Shown here piece by piece: positions 2,770 to 8,972 of a DNA stretch of 22,492 nt (positions within the stretch are counted from its first letter, which is position 1; every line of letters starts with the position of its first letter). Below the pieces are notes generated by a model, which made no database searches, had not been told where the DNA came from, and was given only the letters and a program-made list of their open reading frames with translations. Source of the stretch: a virus. The stretch is from IMG/VR virus record IMGVR_UViG_3300020395_000120, positions 1-22,492 of that record. One strand, given 5' to 3'. Both the position numbers and the translations under genes were made by a program.

Positions 2770-2776
2770 TATTTAG
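2770..2776 (-). promoter_or_regulatory. Putative late promoter variant, CTAAATA
   Basis: Minus-strand CTAAATA overlaps the stop of the 60-aa gene and lies 28 bases upstream of the ATG at 2741. The same heptamer occupies the same position in front of the genes starting at 2955 and 8972, which argues that it is not chance. It may be a variant of NATAAATA. Confidence 0.35.
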
Positions 2777-2955
2777 GTGATTCCTAAAGAGGTCAAAAAA
2801 TGATTATAGTATTCATCGTATCCAGGTATACCAGGATCAACTTTTCTCAAAGCACATATACAAGCTCTTTGATAGAATTCGGTATGTAAACCTCTCTCCT
2901 GTGATTCCATTGCTTCTTTTATCTTAATCCAATTTTGATGAACTTCATCAGTCAT
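2773..2955 (-). CDS. Short hypothetical protein (60 aa)
   Basis: Small soluble, probably helical protein starting MTDEVHQNWIKIKEAMESQE. Cysteines at 32 and 34 (ACICAL) lie in a predicted helix, and the C-terminus is tyrosine-rich (IPGYDEYYNHFL). It has no signal peptide, transmembrane helix or recognisable domain. The ATG lies 24 bases after the stop of the oxygenase gene, with a weak purine-rich site (CAGAG) before it and CTAAATA 26 bases upstream. I do not recognise it. Its position next to the oxygenase and the ParB-like gene suggests a small accessory cassette rather than a virion component, but that is inference. Confidence 0.55.
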   Translation of the reverse strand: MTDEVHQNWIKIKEAMESQERGLHTEFYQRACICALRKVDPGIPGYDEYYNHFLTSLGIT

Positions 2956-2979: not shown

Positions 2980-3591
2980 TTATTTAGGGAATTTGTGAAA
3001 ATACCAACCAGTTGCTATATATTTTTTTCCATTAAGAACAGTACGTCCTCTGTGAATATAGATCCAAGTTGCAGGAAATATAAGTAATCTTCCTGTCTTC
3101 GGTTTGATTAAAGTTCCATTAAAGAATTCTGTCTCACCTTCATCAAAATCATCATTCAAATACCAAATGCAGGTTAACAATCTAGTTCCATTTAGGTTAT
3201 CAATTTGATAATCATCATGCCAATCATAGAATCCATCAGAATCATATACCTTAACTTGATACCCAGAATCAGAATAGAAGTCTTCATTATCTGCGACTTT
3301 ATATGGAAATCCAGTAGACTCTTTTAAATCATCCCTGTAACTATCAACGTATTTTGACATTGATTTATATATTGTATTATCTTCTTCTTCCCAATCAGGT
3401 AATGAACTAATACGTAAATCAAGTGAAGTCTTTTTTGTTATATCTTTTTTCTTTTCTCTACCCATAACACCCAAAGACTTTCTAGTATCAGATTCTATTC
3501 TGTCACATACGTGCTTACAGAAATCAGGTGTCAATGCATTATCATGAATCTTCATGAAAGAATCAAAATTTATATCAGGATGAAAATTCAT
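2980..3591 (-). CDS. 2-oxoglutarate/Fe(II)-dependent oxygenase, prolyl 4-hydroxylase-like
   Basis: A 203-aa protein with the double-stranded beta-helix signature of 2OG/Fe(II) oxygenases. The HxD iron ligands are H125 and D127 (FYDWHDDY), and the distal histidine is H180 (IYIHRGRTV). A basic residue at the 2OG-binding position, K190, is followed by Y191 (GKKYIATGWYF), matching the family spacing H-x(9)-K/R. The strand L-x-x-x-W-Y-L-N-D-D-F (139-149) followed by GETEFF (152-157) is typical of prolyl 4-hydroxylase-like members. All catalytic residues appear intact. The family couples 2OG decarboxylation to hydroxylation of protein side chains or small molecules. It is cytosolic, with no signal peptide. 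The start lies 17 bases inside the preceding ParB-like gene, with a GAAAGAAAGAAG purine run as ribosome site. The substrate is unknown; virion proteins encoded next to it are a reasonable guess. Confidence 0.85.
   Translation of the reverse strand: MNFHPDINFDSFMKIHDNALTPDFCKHVCDRIESDTRKSLGVMGREKKKDITKKTSLDLRISSLPDWEEEDNTIYKSMSKYVDSYRDDLKESTGFPYKVADNEDFYSDSGYQVKVYDSDGFYDWHDDYQIDNLNGTRLLTCIWYLNDDFDEGETEFFNGTLIKPKTGRLLIFPATWIYIHRGRTVLNGKKYIATGWYFHKFPK
2981..2987 (-). promoter_or_regulatory. Putative late promoter variant, CTAAATA
   Basis: Minus-strand CTAAATA overlaps the last codons of the oxygenase gene and lies 26 bases upstream of the ATG at 2955. It is followed by an A-run. It has the same motif and nearly the same spacing as in front of the genes at 2741 and 8972. 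Confidence 0.35.
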
Positions 3592-4024
3592 AATTTCTTC
3601 TTTCTTTCACTACATCATCATCTTCCTTTAAGAAAAACTGTTTTACATCTTTAAAATCAAGAACATAAAACAAACCTTCAGTTTTTTGTTCAAGTAACAT
3701 CTTAACTATTCTACGTCTACCGTCAACCATACGATACTTATTATCAAATGGATTAAAAGCATTACTCAGTATTATACCTGGATATTTTGTATCTGCTGCA
3801 TCATACCTAAGATCCTCTTTTGGCCATGGCAAAGGAAATAAATGTTTATCTTTCCATGCAATATCTTTTAAACTAATTGATTGTATTACATCATCTGTAA
3901 GTAAATGTAATATATCCATCATGAAAAGATAATGAGTCTCTGTAATAGCCCATTTATCTATAGCCCAATTACCATGAAATCCACTGTTAGCACGATGGAA
4001 ATGATGATACCATTCTTTTTTCAC
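3575..4024 (-). CDS. ParB-like domain protein (DGRRR motif), 149 aa
   Basis: Begins at GTG (MKKEWYHHFHRANSG). That start is required because the only nearby upstream ATG belongs to the end of the fibre gene and is closed by a stop after three codons. The stretch PGIILSNAFNPFDNKYRMVD then GRRRIVKMLLEQ (82-113) resembles the ParB/Srx-type nucleotide-binding fold, where a 'variable strand, then DGxHR, then helix' box is diagnostic. Here it reads D101-G102-R103-R104-R105. The N-terminus is rich in W, H and F, and the C-terminus is charged. It begins eight bases after the fibre gene stop and overlaps the oxygenase by 17 bases, so the two are probably co-translated. The function is unknown; the ParB-like call is tentative because only one motif is clear. 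Confidence 0.6.
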   Translation of the reverse strand: MKKEWYHHFHRANSGFHGNWAIDKWAITETHYLFMMDILHLLTDDVIQSISLKDIAWKDKHLFPLPWPKEDLRYDAADTKYPGIILSNAFNPFDNKYRMVDGRRRIVKMLLEQKTEGLFYVLDFKDVKQFFLKEDDDVVKERRNYEFSS

Positions 4025-4031
4025 AATATAA

Positions 4032-7000
4032 TTACAACTTCATTATATAGGTGAGTGTGTAGTATGGTGGTAAGTTCTTACCTGATCCAGACTGACCTTG
4101 AGAATCTATGCTAAAGCTATGTGTGTGATCTCCTGTAGATGTTTCAGTGAAGCTCATAGTAATACTATGATTATGTGAACCTCCACCACCACTACTACCA
4201 CTGAAAGGATGACTATGACTTCCAGTACCTTCACTACTTGTATTACCACTTAGTCCATGATCATGATAACTATAAGTTAAAGGTGGACTTGTAAGAACAT
4301 TAAAGTTCATTGAATGGCTGTGGTTTTCACTAATTCCTAAAGTAGCATGTGTAAGACTATGACTGTGATTTCCACCACCAGTAGCAACATTTCTTACACC
4401 TAAACTATTCCATGCAGTTGAATAACCCCATCCAGTTTCACTATCCTCACCGCTAAAATAAGGTGGATATGCTGGTTGGGTGTGACTGTGACCTCCTCCT
4501 CCAAAACCAGAACCACTAGTATCTAATGTGTGAGTGTGGTTAGCACTTTGGTTACCTGTATTAGCATTTATGTTAGCCTGGTGAGTGTGACTTCCACCTT
4601 CATCTGTATCAAAATCAACTGAATGAGAATGTGATCCACCACTAGCATTGCTTACAGCATAGTTTCCAGCAGGGTGAGTATGATTACTTTGGTTACTTAC
4701 ATTAGTACTACTTTGACTTACACTATGAGTATGATCTCCAGTACTACTAAAGGATGAATATCCATGACTGTGAGATACAACTACTGCATCAGCACTACCA
4801 CCAGTACCACTATAACTTCCACCAGCAGCAACAATAAATCTACCTCTTAAATCAGGTGTTCCATTTGATCCATCACACACAGCCCATCCAGAAGGAGCAC
4901 TACCACTGTTGTACATAACAATAGTACCAGAAGGAACTCCTGAAGGTGCTGAAGCAGAAGTTAGATATCCCTGTGTACTGTGATCACCCCATCCATAAGC
5001 GGTATCCCATTGTGATATCTTAGTCGTTGTTACATTACTAGCAGCATGTGATGAAAATACAGGATCGGATTCACTAGTCACGAATCCACTATCATTAGTA
5101 AGTTGACTTACATTTGTTGGTACATTTGCTGGAGTGTAGGTAAACTCTCCATTACTAGCATTGTAAGAAAGATCACCATTACCAGAAGCAGCAGGGTGTG
5201 GTGAAGCAACACTAATATCTGTTAGAGCAATTCCACCTCCACTACTACTTACTGATGCAAGATCAAACTGAGCACCAGTCCACCTCAAATAAGTATTTGC
5301 TGTACGGTTTTGAGCAAGACCAACATTAACATCTTTAATATCATTTAGATTAGCATCCAACTCAATATTAATATTTCCAGATGATGTTACAGGACTATTG
5401 GTTACTGTTACTCCAGTACCTCCTAAAAGTCCTACACTAGTTACAGTACCAGAGTTACTTGTATATCCAGCAGCACTATGATCACCCCATCCATAAGCAG
5501 AATTCCAATTAGAAATATTAGTTGAAGTAATGCTCTTTACATGACTAGGTACAGTAGGATCTGTTTCTGTAAATGAAGTTAGGTATCCAGCAGTACTATG
5601 ATCACCCCATCCATAAGCAGTATCCCATTGTGCTGTCTTAGAAGAATTAGGTATACCTGATAAATCTGGTGGACTGTATGTGAAGATACCTGTTGTATCA
5701 TCATAAGAAATTCCACCTGTAGCAGTTGCAGATCCGTTAGTACCATTTATTGATAATCCTTGTCTAGCTTGTGCTAAAGTAATTCCAGAAGATCCTGCAT
5801 TATTCCAATTAGTAATATCCTGTGCAGTAATATTCTTTACATGACTAGGTACAGTAGGATCAGTCTCTGTATATGAAGTTAAGTATCCTTCTGTACTATG
5901 ATCACCCCATCCATAAGCAGAATTCCAATTAGTAATATTAGATGAATTAATATTATATGCAGCAGAAGCAACAAAAACAGGATCTGTTTCTGTATATGAA
6001 GTTAAAGCTGAGTTCCATGTATTAATATTTGATTGAGTAATACTCTTTACATGACTAGGTACAGTAGGATCTGTTTCTGTAAATGAAGTTAAGTATCCAG
6101 CAGCACTATGATCACCCCATCCATAAGCGGTATCCCATTGTGATATCTTGGAAGCATTGGGTATACCTGATAAATCTGGTGGAGTATATGTAAACTGACC
6201 ATTAATACTACTATATGTTAGATCACCATTTCCAGAAGCAGCAGGGTTTGGTTTTAGAACACTAAGATCTGTTAGTGCAATACCACCACCAGAAGCACTG
6301 GATGCGGTTACTTTAACTTCATGTGAATTACTACCATAGTTGGTAATCATAATCCATGCAGCAGTTATATTATAAACTGTTGAACCAGTATAAGATCCTG
6401 AACTTGTTACGAATTGCCAGTCAGTACCATTACTAGATCTCCAAACATCTAGTGTATCAATAGTACTATTAAACCCACTCTGAACACTGTCTGGGTGTAC
6501 TTTTATACTCCAAGTAGTTTCACTTAGATCTGACAATCTAAAGAAAGAAGGAGTCCAATCATTTCTTAAATTCCAAGGTGAAATCTTTCCACCAAAATTA
6601 TTCCATACCCAAGGAGAACCTGTTGGCATGGTAGCAGTGAAATCATCATAAGATTGATCTAGAAAGTCATAAAGATAATCACTAGGATTAATGTTTCCTG
6701 CTACACCATAACCTATGTACTCTATTACAGCAGAAGAAGCTACTCCACCACTAGTAAAATTATATGTAATTTCAGTTAAAACATTATCAAGTGATCTTGT
6801 AATCTTGAAGTAATAAACATGACATCTTGATCCTGGACCTCTGTTACTACCACCAGTACCATTTGCATCTGGATATTCAACAAATGTTAGAGTTTGTAAT
6901 TGACCACTGTATGCTGGTGAATTATTATCATATACTATAATTTCTGTAGGTGAACCTGTAACTCCATTAGCACCATAAGCTTGTCCATTATCAACTCTCA

Positions 7001-8972
7001 ACAGAGTAGCAGAGTCAGTACTTATTCCACTATTACTACCATATCCTATCCAACCATGACCATCAAATCCAACTGTAATTTTAACTACGTCTGTTAATGC
7101 AGCTTGTGATAACCACAGAAAGCTCATGTCAGCATGACCACATCCCATGTTCACAAACGTATTATCATTACCATCACAGAGAGGTAATAATGAAACTCCA
7201 CCAGGTCCAGTAGTGGAAGCAGACTGATAAGTTATAGCCTCTTGATAATTATTTGCTGCTGTTTGTTCAGACCATCTAGGTTCTCCATTTAAATATGTAA
7301 CATATGTGTTAGAACTAGTGGCAGAACCAGTTAGATCTGCAGCTGCAACCCATTGAGTATTAGTATTATCCCATTTTAAAACATATCCATCAGTTATAGT
7401 AGTACCAACATTAACATCTCCAATATCGTTAAGAGTATTAATTGTAGTATCATCTCCAATTACCCAAGAAGTTCCATTATGTTTAAGAATCTTGCCATTT
7501 CCTACACCACTTGTATTAACATCACTTAGATCATTTAATGCTGATACATCAGACTTAGCATTCCAACTATTAATATCTCCAGTAGTAATACCCTTCACAT
7601 GAGATGGAACAGTAGGATCAGATTCTGTAGTTAAGTATCCTTCTGTACTATGATCACCCCATCCATGAGCATCATTCCAATTACTAATATCAGCTGAACC
7701 AATGCTCTTTACATGAGCAGGTACTGTGGGATCTGTTTCTGTAAATGAAGTTAAGTAACCAGAAGTAAAGTTAATCCAATTATTACCATCCCACTTTAAG
7801 AGTTGATCACCTTGAACATTATTAATAGATACATCATTAATATCACCTAAAGAATTTATTGTAGTACCTCCACTACCAGCATTATCATCTGCTATTACCC
7901 AAGAGGTTCCATTATATTTAAGAATTTTGTTGTTTGCTACACCAGTTGTATCAACATCAGAAAGAGCACCAATACTAAGAGAACCAATTCCTTTTAAATA
8001 ACCTTCGGTAGAATGATCACCCCATCCATGTGCTTCATCCCAATTAGTTACTTGTTGTGCAGTAATACCCTTTACATGAGATGGAACAGTAGGATCTGTT
8101 TCTGTATATCCAGTTATAAATCCAACATCATTATTAAGTTGACTTAAATTAGAAGGTACATCTGCTGGAGTAAATGTAAATTGACCACTTACATCATTAT
8201 AAGTAAGATCACCATTTCCAGAAGCAGCAGGGTTTGGTTTAACAACACTAATATCTGTTAGAGCAATTCCACTACCACTAGTAGATGTTGAGTCAGGTGC
8301 TGGACCCCATGTAGTTCCATCCCACTTGAGAACATGACCAGTTGTAATAGTTCCAGGTATTGTGGTATCAGTTAAAGCAGCAAGTGTTGTTGCACCACCT
8401 CCACCACCAGTAGATTTTATAGTAACATCAGAACCATTTGCATTTAAACCCTCAAATTCAATACCAGTTCCTGCTTTGAAACTAATAATATCAGTTCCAC
8501 TACCAGAACCACCAGCAGTTAATTGTAATTTAAATTCGTCTGCTACTGGAGTATTACCACTTTGAATAAGATCAATTGTGTATGTGGTATCTGAATCTGT
8601 AGTTAAATAACCTGCTTGACTATGATCACCCCATCCATGTGCTTCATTCCAGTCTGCAATATTTTGTGTAGTAATGCTTTTTACATGACCAGGAACAGTA
8701 GGATCTGTTTCTGTAAATGAAGTTAAATATCCAACATCATTTGTTAATTCACTAAGTTTTGTTATACCATCAAACCATTCTAAAGAACTCCCAGAAGAAT
8801 CTACCCGTATCCACTTATCTGCTGTGAATGTTGTAGGTGTATCTGTAAGAGCTACAAAAGCAGTAGCCCCAGATTGAGTTTGTAAATTATAAACGTCTGC
8901 TGCTAGATTATTAATCTTTGTCCTTTGTTCTTCAAAGGTATCGGTTTTCGCAACATTAATCAGCTGTGGCAT
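4032..8972 (-). CDS. Giant tail fibre protein C with collar domain and HxH metal-binding-like tip (1646 aa)
   Basis: The N-terminus (MPQLINVAKTDTFEEQRTKI then NNLAADVYNL) matches that of fibre A and is a likely docking segment. Residues ~25-550 and ~890-1335 are a mosaic of short beta modules: eight GWGDHS units, TETDPTVPSHVKSIT linkers, 'SGNGDLTYxxxxGxFTYTP' units, and 'L-x-D-V...LKYNGTSWVIADD' units. Residues ~552-890 form a distinct globular insert. A phage tail-collar domain follows at about 1340-1390 (GTIVMYNSGSAPSGWAVCDG, GTPDLRGRFIV). From about 1400 to 1617 the chain holds 13 HxH motifs, and it ends NLPPYYTLTYIMKL. In T4 gp37, HxH motifs of the trimer coordinate iron along the fibre tip, so a trimeric metal-stabilised receptor-binding tip is inferred. 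The gene follows the chaperone-like gene. AGGGATGGA precedes the ATG and CTAAATA is 25 bases upstream. Confidence 0.9.
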   Translation of the reverse strand: MPQLINVAKTDTFEEQRTKINNLAADVYNLQTQSGATAFVALTDTPTTFTADKWIRVDSSGSSLEWFDGITKLSELTNDVGYLTSFTETDPTVPGHVKSITTQNIADWNEAHGWGDHSQAGYLTTDSDTTYTIDLIQSGNTPVADEFKLQLTAGGSGSGTDIISFKAGTGIEFEGLNANGSDVTIKSTGGGGGATTLAALTDTTIPGTITTGHVLKWDGTTWGPAPDSTSTSGSGIALTDISVVKPNPAASGNGDLTYNDVSGQFTFTPADVPSNLSQLNNDVGFITGYTETDPTVPSHVKGITAQQVTNWDEAHGWGDHSTEGYLKGIGSLSIGALSDVDTTGVANNKILKYNGTSWVIADDNAGSGGTTINSLGDINDVSINNVQGDQLLKWDGNNWINFTSGYLTSFTETDPTVPAHVKSIGSADISNWNDAHGWGDHSTEGYLTTESDPTVPSHVKGITTGDINSWNAKSDVSALNDLSDVNTSGVGNGKILKHNGTSWVIGDDTTINTLNDIGDVNVGTTITDGYVLKWDNTNTQWVAAADLTGSATSSNTYVTYLNGEPRWSEQTAANNYQEAITYQSASTTGPGGVSLLPLCDGNDNTFVNMGCGHADMSFLWLSQAALTDVVKITVGFDGHGWIGYGSNSGISTDSATLLRVDNGQAYGANGVTGSPTEIIVYDNNSPAYSGQLQTLTFVEYPDANGTGGSNRGPGSRCHVYYFKITRSLDNVLTEITYNFTSGGVASSAVIEYIGYGVAGNINPSDYLYDFLDQSYDDFTATMPTGSPWVWNNFGGKISPWNLRNDWTPSFFRLSDLSETTWSIKVHPDSVQSGFNSTIDTLDVWRSSNGTDWQFVTSSGSYTGSTVYNITAAWIMITNYGSNSHEVKVTASSASGGGIALTDLSVLKPNPAASGNGDLTYSSINGQFTYTPPDLSGIPNASKISQWDTAYGWGDHSAAGYLTSFTETDPTVPSHVKSITQSNINTWNSALTSYTETDPVFVASAAYNINSSNITNWNSAYGWGDHSTEGYLTSYTETDPTVPSHVKNITAQDITNWNNAGSSGITLAQARQGLSINGTNGSATATGGISYDDTTGIFTYSPPDLSGIPNSSKTAQWDTAYGWGDHSTAGYLTSFTETDPTVPSHVKSITSTNISNWNSAYGWGDHSAAGYTSNSGTVTSVGLLGGTGVTVTNSPVTSSGNINIELDANLNDIKDVNVGLAQNRTANTYLRWTGAQFDLASVSSSGGGIALTDISVASPHPAASGNGDLSYNASNGEFTYTPANVPTNVSQLTNDSGFVTSESDPVFSSHAASNVTTTKISQWDTAYGWGDHSTQGYLTSASAPSGVPSGTIVMYNSGSAPSGWAVCDGSNGTPDLRGRFIVAAGGSYSGTGGSADAVVVSHSHGYSSFSSTGDHTHSVSQSSTNVSNQSNHTHPAGNYAVSNASGGSHSHSVDFDTDEGGSHTHQANINANTGNQSANHTHTLDTSGSGFGGGGHSHTQPAYPPYFSGEDSETGWGYSTAWNSLGVRNVATGGGNHSHSLTHATLGISENHSHSMNFNVLTSPPLTYSYHDHGLSGNTSSEGTGSHSHPFSGSSGGGGSHNHSITMSFTETSTGDHTHSFSIDSQGQSGSGKNLPPYYTLTYIMKL
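4100..4790 (-). other. Segment encoding 13 HxH motifs (fibre C tip)
   Basis: About 220 residues rich in G, S, T and N contain thirteen His-x-His motifs. In order from the N-terminal side they are HSH, HTH, HTH, HSH, HTH, HTH, HSH, HSH, HSH, HDH, HSH, HNH, HTH. They are spaced roughly every 10-25 residues, with one longer spacing around the HSHTQPAYPPYFSG section. The central residue is mostly S or T. The arrangement agrees with the collagen-like or needle-shaped metal-binding tip seen in T4 gp37. Confidence 0.75.
6300..7316 (-). other. Inserted globular domain of fibre C (~340 residues)
   Basis: Between two repeat tracts the composition changes to a non-repetitive, Trp-, Tyr- and Cys-containing sequence (residues ~552-890). 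It includes LLPLCDGNDNTFVNMGCGHA, then GSRCHVYYFKITR, then WNLRNDWTPSFFRLSDLSE, and VWRSSNGTDWQFVTSSG. The last part resembles galactose-binding or F5/8C-like beta sandwiches, but I cannot assign a family. Both flanks are standard fibre modules, so the domain looks inserted into the repeat framework. Confidence 0.6.
8410..8604 (-). repeat. Duplicated fibre module, copy in fibre C
   Basis: It encodes the module TTDSDTTYTIDLIQSGNTPV to TIKST. The right-hand 66 bases (8539-8604) match 11015-11080 in fibre B at 63 of 66 positions by eye. The remainder is similar at protein level with one codon of length difference. Confidence 0.85.

What the first reader, a model, noticed from the sequence alone, without database searches (positions are those of the whole stretch)
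2980..4024. Oxygenase and ParB-like gene pair embedded among tail genes
An apparently intact 2OG/Fe(II) oxygenase (H125, D127, H180, K190) overlaps by 17 bases a protein with a ParB-like DGRRR box, immediately downstream of the giant fibre C. Oxygenases of this type are known in marine T4-like phages but their substrate is unsettled. Placement suggests modification of fibre proteins, for example hydroxylation of Pro or Asp/Asn in the Pro-rich modules, or a host target. The pair may act as one unit.
Basis: partly seen in the sequence, partly recalled or inferred. Interest (0 to 1): 0.5.

Follow-up and report, generated by a model that had tools for sequence, protein, structure and literature searches.

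The report
Phage fibre hydroxylase with ParB-fold partner
A marine phage, probably of cyanobacteria, carries among its tail-fibre genes a small enzyme shaped like those that hydroxylate proline in collagen, its gene overlapping that of a small partner protein that recurs beside such enzymes; related phages suggest, without proof, that these enzymes chemically modify the phage's own tail fibres.

Summary
Observation confirmed. Window 2980-3591(-) is an intact prolyl-4-hydroxylase-type 2OG-Fe(II) oxygenase; 3575-4024(-) is a ParB/sulfiredoxin-fold protein (phrog_35149). They overlap by 17 bp, 7 bp behind a 1646-aa fibre gene.

The pairing is real but not obligatory: 14 of 46 ParB-like clusters have an oxygenase as next gene, against 42 of 604 other genes. 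The closest oxygenase relatives keep it in 7 of 7 contigs. A second, probable oxygenase family overlaps or is fused to ParB-like proteins in 15 of 55 clusters; a bacterial fusion also exists.

In five relatives the gene upstream of the pair is collagen-like. One of them, and isolates S-CAM9 and S-PRM1, encode a collagen lysyl-hydroxylase/glycosyltransferase; fibres there carry Lys at Gly-X-Y position Y, four sister loci without it almost none. The window's fibre is not collagen-like, and the collagen-oxygenase link is not significant after phylogeny.

Best reading: an accessory module hydroxylating the co-expressed fibre. Substrate and partner's job are inferred. The window partner lacks CxCC and has DGRRR where most relatives have DG(K/R)HR.

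The parts
2980..3591 (-). 2OG-Fe(II) oxygenase of prolyl-4-hydroxylase type, 203 aa
   Evidence: PF13640 1.1e-16, phrog_61 7.6e-40; AF2 model pLDDT 89 closest to viral collagen prolyl hydroxylase and P4Hs
3217..3219 (-). codon of H125, first expected iron ligand (H-x-D)
   Evidence: residue by script; invariant in 45-row alignment
3211..3213 (-). codon of D127, second expected iron ligand
   Evidence: not among the positions at 90% or more
3052..3054 (-). codon of H180, third expected iron ligand
   Evidence: invariant
3022..3024 (-). codon of K190, expected 2-oxoglutarate-binding lysine (role recalled from P4Hs)
   Evidence: at least 90% conserved
3575..4024 (-). ParB/sulfiredoxin-fold protein, 149 aa, GTG start, family phrog_35149
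   Evidence: phrog_35149 1.4e-32; AF2 model pLDDT 92; ParB, Srx, SbnI, SerK are the top fold matches
3710..3724 (-). DGRRR box, residues 101-105 (family majority DG(K/R)HR)
3575..3591 (-). 17-bp overlap of the two genes
4032..8972 (-). fibre gene directly upstream, 1646 aa; candidate substrate
   Evidence: phrog_9729 tail fiber 1e-139; no window ORF of 100 aa or more has a Gly-X-Y tract of 8 or more triplets
2773..2955 (-). 60-aa ORF downstream, unknown; occurs without the pair in L335 and L340

Best explanation
The two genes are one co-translated accessory module carried in a tail-fibre gene run of a cyanophage-like T4-type virus. The oxygenase is a protein hydroxylase of the prolyl-4-hydroxylase type: with Fe(II), O2 and 2-oxoglutarate it hydroxylates a side chain, most likely Pro, in the fibre protein made just upstream. 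The ParB/Srx-fold protein is its dedicated partner, most likely a nucleotide-binding accessory that presents or gates the substrate; in relatives that keep DG(K/R)HR it may act on the hydroxyl itself, as ParB-fold serine kinases act on a hydroxyl. Shown by sequence or prediction: both ORFs are intact and under purifying selection, the predicted folds are those named, the genes overlap, the module is absent from syntenic fibre loci, the ParB-like family recurs beside oxygenases and fused to a probable oxygenase domain, and some relatives flank collagen-like fibres and a matching lysine-modifying enzyme. Inferred: co-translation, catalysis, the fibre as substrate, residue type, nucleotide binding and the partner's job.
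For: Predicted fold of a peptidyl hydroxylase: best Foldseek hit is the chlorella-virus collagen prolyl hydroxylase 5c5t (E 2.4e-11); VIA Z 20.6 to algal P4H with a Ser-Pro peptide, 20.1 to P. putida P4H with EF-Tu, 19.3 to 5c5t. ParB/Srx fold. Linkage: 14 of 46 clusters versus 42 of 604 other genes (odds ratio 5.9, p 7e-6 with relatedness ignored; 14 of 46 versus 43 of 603 when the D family is counted too); pairing changes 7 times on the ParB-like tree, at least 6 forced by supported branches; partners match different oxygenase profiles and lie on either side; 15 of 55 clusters of the D family carry an overlapping or fused ParB-like partner; fusions L491 (Cellvibrionaceae, 349 aa) and L538 (viral, 328 aa). 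Fibre context: in the window and the 7 contigs with the closest oxygenases a fibre or collagen-like gene lies directly upstream of the pair (window; L014 and L015 contigs; collagen-like in L016-L020, cut by the contig end in 4 of these 5). Accessory insertion: S-CAM1 and S-CAM3 as annotated have the syntenic locus without the pair; the pair is seen in 2 of 80 syntenic contigs. Enzyme-substrate match in relatives: six viruses with the collagen lysyl-hydroxylase/glycosyltransferase gene have Lys at Y in 18/84, 24/88, 70/186, 22/59, 23/59 and 35/82 triplets; four sister loci where it was not seen have 0/75, 2/217, 1/252, 0/70.
Against: The window, L014 and L015 show no collagen-like gene in the DNA held. 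Y-position proline is absent in L017 (0 of 217 triplets) although its oxygenase is 50% identical, so a classical Gly-X-Pro hydroxylase cannot be the rule. Within 40 deduplicated loci, oxygenase-collagen adjacency is no better than shuffles (26 versus 24.6, p 0.40; 26 versus 20.7, p 0.065). The locus-level association (21 both, 18 neither, 3 oxygenase only, 2 collagen only) rests on two collagen changes on the tree. The ParB-like sister rows L021 (no oxygenase near), L022 (a different oxygenase upstream) and L026 (oxygenase on the other strand) break the fixed pair. Several annotated relatives sit apart from oxygenases, near thymidylate synthase, carbamoyltransferase, speD or replication genes. 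ParB-fold scores are moderate: no Foldseek hit at E 0.001 or better, Z at most 5.9.
Confidence: 0.42

Rival explanations
1. The oxygenase modifies a host protein (translation factor or ribosomal protein) during infection; the fibre locus is only where the insert landed.
For: P. putida P4H bound to EF-Tu is among the closest structures, Z 20.1; a bacterial P4H entry titled as modifying EF-Tu (5v7y) is also listed; the window's fibre is not collagen-like.
Against: The window and its 7 nearest contigs place the pair directly behind a fibre or collagen-like gene, and related oxygenases sit with a collagen-modifying enzyme.
Confidence: 0.2
2. The pair acts on DNA, RNA or nucleotides: an oxidised base or nucleotide is handled by the ParB-fold protein.
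For: Unpaired ParB-like relatives lie near thymidylate synthase, Nol-like carbamoyltransferase, speD or replication genes and S-N03 has its pair between recombinase and helicase. Sullivan et al. 2010 name DNA repair as a possible role of cyanophage 2OG oxygenases (PMC3037559, passages).
Against: Of the 50 structures shown (1568 matched) all but PolD are titled prolyl hydroxylase or PHD2; the VIA list also has PiuC and uncharacterised oxygenases lower down. The window's copy is inside the fibre cluster.
Confidence: 0.13
3. Two unrelated accessory genes that landed in an insertion hot spot; the overlap has no functional meaning.
For: 32 of 46 ParB-like clusters are unpaired; 72 of 80 oxygenase-scan loci show no ParB-like gene; oxygenases are common in these loci, 40 of 690 genes.
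Against: At least six supported changes on the tree, different oxygenase profiles as partners, and two fusions to a probable oxygenase domain.
Confidence: 0.17
4. Metabolic role: the oxygenase draws on 2-oxoglutarate and so tunes the host nitrogen (NtcA) response.
For: Proposed for cyanophage 2OG oxygenases by Sullivan et al. 2010 (PMC3037559, passages).
Against: Does not explain the P4H-type fold, the fibre context or the partner.
Confidence: 0.05

Closest known systems
Viral collagen prolyl hydroxylase vCPH of chlorella virus PBCV-1 and other P4Hs (PF13640)
   Same: Predicted fold and order of iron ligands; lysine at the expected 2OG position; vCPH is the top Foldseek match
   Different: 22-24% identity to vCPH; the window lacks a collagen-like gene; activity unknown; ParB-fold partner beside it
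ParB-CTPase / sulfiredoxin / SerK-SbnI superfamily
   Same: Predicted fold; G-x-R/H-R box; very short single-domain phage members are noted in the PNAS 2025 survey (PMC12704722, passages)
   Different: 149 aa without HTH or C-terminal domain; no Pfam match; CxCC in 35 of 46 relatives but not here; in that survey's main text words beginning 'oxygenase' or '2OG' occur 0 times
Procollagen lysyl hydroxylase/glycosyltransferase (LH3, COLGALT1, mimivirus R699)
   Same: A phage version lies in the tail locus of L020, which carries a sister pair, and in isolates S-CAM9 and S-PRM1
   Different: Not seen in the window; a different oxygenase branch from the finding's gene; S-CAM9 and S-PRM1 loci have no ParB-like gene in the DNA held

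Membership tests
P4H-type 2OG-Fe(II) oxygenase (PF13640) | Profile score above gathering cut-off | tested here: met
   62.1 versus 27 bits
P4H-type 2OG-Fe(II) oxygenase (PF13640) | H-x-D...H iron triad and basic 2OG residue | tested here: met
   H125, D127, H180, K190; H125 and H180 invariant, K190 at least 90%
P4H-type 2OG-Fe(II) oxygenase (PF13640) | Double-stranded beta-helix fold like P4H | tested here: met
   predicted model; Z 20.6, rmsd 2.4, 169 aligned to 3gze
P4H-type 2OG-Fe(II) oxygenase (PF13640) | Prolyl hydroxylation activity | not testable with these tools
   needs enzyme assay
Collagen prolyl hydroxylase system | Collagen-like (Gly-X-Y) gene in the same locus | tested here: not met
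   none in the window; present in 5 of the 8 contigs with the closest pairs
ParB/Srx superfamily | Fold | tested here: met
   predicted model; Foldseek prob 1.00 to ParB 7bnr, E 1.2e-3; VIA Z up to 5.9, moderate
ParB/Srx superfamily | Nucleotide binding | not testable with these tools
   needs binding assay
Canonical ParB (PF02195, HTH, dimer domain) | Pfam match and extra domains | tested here: not met
   149 aa; no Pfam match for the window protein at 0.1, best of 46 relatives E 0.022 to an unrelated family
SerK/SbnI serine kinase | NCBIfam SerK profile | tested here: inconclusive
   3 of 46 family members, best E 0.0049; not the window protein
SerK/SbnI serine kinase | His of the DG-x-H-R box (motif recalled) | tested here: not met
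   Arg in the window; His in 38 of 46 clusters
D family as 2OG oxygenase | Relation to oxygenase profiles at both metal motifs | tested here: inconclusive
   invariant H-x-N, H, R; three local hhalign matches P 0.0004-0.002 at the expected motifs, probabilities 14-37; in end-to-end mode some oxygenase profiles did no better than 3 controls; no oxygenase among its Pfam matches

The most novel reading that the evidence does not exclude
Marine phages carry a two-part protein-modification module, a 2OG hydroxylase plus a ParB/Srx-fold nucleotide-using partner (sometimes fused), that hydroxylates and then further processes (for example phosphorylates) residues of their tail fibres, parallel to a phage-encoded collagen hydroxylation and glycosylation pathway; the window's copy is a derived form whose partner has Arg in place of the kinase-like His.
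Probability: 0.15. Interest if true: 0.85.

Novelty: new variant of a known kind. Interest (0 to 1): 0.6.

Why it matters
Cyanophages carry several 2OG oxygenases of unsettled purpose. A recurrent ParB-fold partner, fusions, and a fibre/collagen context give that question a concrete substrate hypothesis. Isolates S-CAM9 and S-PRM1 (fibre, small ORF, two oxygenases and a collagen-lysine hydroxylase/glycosyltransferase in overlapping genes) and S-N03 (oxygenase overlapping ParB-like) make it testable by mass spectrometry. If true, phages hydroxylate, and perhaps glycosylate, collagen-like fibres with their own enzymes.

Tried and rejected
Canonical ParB partition gene: rejected, no Pfam match, too short for the extra domains. 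Sulfiredoxin proper: the catalytic Cys of its box (recalled) is not in DG(K/R)HR. Degenerate pseudogene: unlikely given dN and dS. Simple collagen prolyl hydroxylase for the window: not supported. Adjacency of oxygenase and collagen genes beyond chance: not shown. The strong locus-level association fell to two independent collagen changes on a tree, and the anchor alignment A9 was itself built from four loci that hold oxygenases, so it leans that way. Sequence search of the ParB-like profile against solved structures: nothing up to E 10. Bacterial fusion: found in 1 of 293 genomes searched, the source genome itself. Gammaproteobacterial ParB-like copies (L482-L490): no oxygenase among the neighbours shown. 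Search of phage records with one D protein and its ParB-like partner found no annotated pair. The gene beside the L492 D pair had no match in phage records. Paper searches, seen as listings, some capped at 20 rows; none listed described the pair by title or the start of the abstract. Passages were read; no paper was read whole.

Dropped rows: the tool kept 80 of 232 ParB-like relatives; 94 hits became 85 loci after leaving out 9 same-contig repeats, then 46 clusters; the adjacency shuffles used 40 of 83 loci; the anchor test used 44 of 80 loci, those with at least 4 kb upstream; the D test clustered 80 loci to 55. In the syntenic set at least 9 of 80 contigs begin too late to show the place of the pair. 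Structure alignments used 41 and 45 rows after leaving out rows from annotated records.

Full report
On the minus strand a 1646-aa fibre gene (4032-8972) is followed after 7 bases by a 149-aa GTG-start ORF (3575-4024) and, overlapping it by 17 bases, a 203-aa ORF (2980-3591). The 464-aa protein at 12-1406 is 58-59% identical over its whole length to proteins of Synechococcus phages S-CAM1 and S-CAM3, so the window is part of a cyanophage-like T4-type virus.

The oxygenase. It passes PF13640 and matches phrog_61. In 45 aligned sequences H125, R137, G167 and H180 are invariant and K190 is at least 90% conserved. An AlphaFold2 model (pLDDT 89) is closest to peptidyl-prolyl hydroxylases: viral collagen prolyl hydroxylase 5c5t by Foldseek, and algal P4H, P. 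putida P4H and 5c5t at Z 19-21 by VIA-align. This says what the fold is, not what the substrate is.

The ParB-like protein. No Pfam model fits the 46 family members better than E 0.02, but the model (pLDDT 92) finds ParB, Noc, KorB, sulfiredoxin, SbnI and SerK at the top, with moderate scores (E 1.2e-3, Z 5.9 at best). NCBIfam's SerK profile touches 3 of 46 relatives weakly. Of 46 clusters 38 carry the His of DG(K/R)HR and 35 the CxCC motif; the 8 without the His, the window among them, all lack CxCC. The window partner is therefore a divergent form. Gammaproteobacterial homologues in metagenome-assembled genomes also have DGRRR.

Do they travel together? An IMG/VR scan plus phage records gave 85 ParB-like loci, 46 clusters at 90% identity. 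In 14 the next gene within 60 bp on the same strand is an oxygenase, against 42 of 604 other genes in the same loci (Fisher p 7e-6, relatedness ignored). On the ParB-like tree pairing changes 7 times, at least 6 on supported branches. In the window and its nearest kin the order is fibre, ParB-like, oxygenase; elsewhere the oxygenase is upstream (S-N03, L022, L051, L056, L081, L089) or on both sides (AG-345-L05, L075-L079). From the oxygenase side, 7 of 7 contigs with at least 50% identity have the partner directly upstream, but only 8 of all 80 loci hold one. Two contigs at 49% identity (L176, L177) have none. On the ParB-like tree the nearest sisters L021, L022 and L026 do not share the arrangement.

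Fusions. A scan of bacterial genomes found a 349-aa protein in a Cellvibrionaceae assembly whose C-terminal part is ParB-like and whose N-terminal part is a family called D here. D has invariant H-x-N, H and R. No Pfam match names it an oxygenase; one of 41 members touches phrog_61 weakly (E 0.0048). Local profile alignments place its two motifs on the metal motifs of three oxygenase profiles with P 0.0004-0.002 but probabilities of 14-37; end to end, some oxygenase profiles did no better than the controls. D is a probable oxygenase, not a proven one. In 80 viral D loci (55 clusters), 15 clusters have a ParB-like gene overlapping downstream or fused; L538 is a second fusion. In 8 of 28 such loci (L492 and L493 included) the next gene begins with an ISELG-type, fibre-like sequence, and in a ninth with a similar one (my reading by eye; no match in phage records).

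Where the window's module sits. S-CAM1 and S-CAM3 as annotated have the same run of genes without the pair. Of 80 contigs with the neighbouring structural gene, 2 show the pair (the contigs of L014 and L015, 92-99% identical in that gene), 3 others hold an oxygenase upstream of it, and none shows a collagen-like gene; at least 9 begin too late to show the place. The pair is an accessory insertion.

Fibre modification. In the five other near relatives (L016-L020) the gene directly upstream of the pair is collagen-like, cut by the contig end in four. L020 also encodes a 635-aa protein that is collagen galactosyltransferase-like, LH3-glycosyltransferase-like and lysyl-hydroxylase-like in succession (E 6e-21 to COLGALT1, 4e-33 to LH3). 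The same gene is in two further viral contigs with oxygenase/ParB-like/oxygenase runs and collagen-like genes (L277, L279), in the AG-345-L05 record set (on another contig than its oxygenase/ParB-like/oxygenase run), and in isolates such as S-CAM9 and S-PRM1, where fibre, a small ORF, two oxygenases and this gene overlap in turn. In these six the collagen-like triplets have Lys at position Y in 18/84, 24/88, 70/186, 22/59, 23/59 and 35/82; in four sister loci where the gene was not seen 0/75, 2/217, 1/252 and 0/70 (those contigs are partial, so the gene may lie outside). This match supports fibre modification as a theme of these loci. It does not show it for the window, whose fibre is not collagen-like, and S-CAM9 and S-PRM1 have no ParB-like gene in the DNA held.

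Results against. Oxygenase-collagen adjacency within loci is not above shuffles. In 44 loci chosen by a structural anchor, 21 have both, 18 neither, 3 only an oxygenase and 2 only collagen (p 3e-7), but the tree needs just two collagen changes, so this is not independent proof. L017 has no Y-position proline at all.

Print. The 2025 ParB-fold survey (PMC12704722, passages) notes very short phage ParB-fold proteins and has no word beginning 'oxygenase' in its main text. Sullivan 2010 (PMC3037559, passages) reports 2OG oxygenases in 14 of 16 cyanophage genomes and suggests DNA repair or 2OG signalling. A Baltic Sea study (PMC9301287, passages) says that collagen can be part of viral tail fibres and that how viruses use prolyl 4-hydroxylase remains cryptic. 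A pelagimyophage study (PMC7029224, passages) lists collagen repeats among structural proteins. I found no description of the pair in the searches listed under Tried and rejected.

Noticed in passing
L020:4826-6733; L277:6283-8190; L279:11352-13259; S-CAM9 L577:9001-10842; S-PRM1 L578:9001-10845; AG-345-L05 L579:1835-3766: Phage three-domain collagen-lysine modifying enzyme (COLGALT1-like, LH3-GT-like, lysyl hydroxylase-like; domains shown for L020, the others by overall similarity) in viruses whose collagen-like fibres have Lys at position Y; annotated as hypothetical protein in S-CAM9 and S-PRM1.
   Followed up: partly
   Followed up: partly
L482-L490: ParB-like proteins with DGRRR and no CxCC in gammaproteobacterial assemblies; in 8 of 9 loci beside a divergently read gene that looks like glutathione S-transferase (Pfam-checked for L488 only).
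   Followed up: no
L480: A contig filed under a Planctomycetaceae metagenome assembly carries this phage's fibre, ParB-like (95% identical) and oxygenase genes; probably a mis-binned phage contig.
   Followed up: no
window 2773-2955: A 60-aa ORF sits between the pair and the phrog_580 gene; it occurs without the pair in L335 and L340, and L021 (6821-6976) has a similar-looking small ORF two genes after an unpaired ParB-like gene (by eye).
   Followed up: no
L016:4898-5491, L008:8385-8981, L075:955-1551: A second, well-conserved oxygenase subfamily near a large structural protein in many marine phage tail loci, often a few genes behind collagen-like genes.
   Followed up: partly
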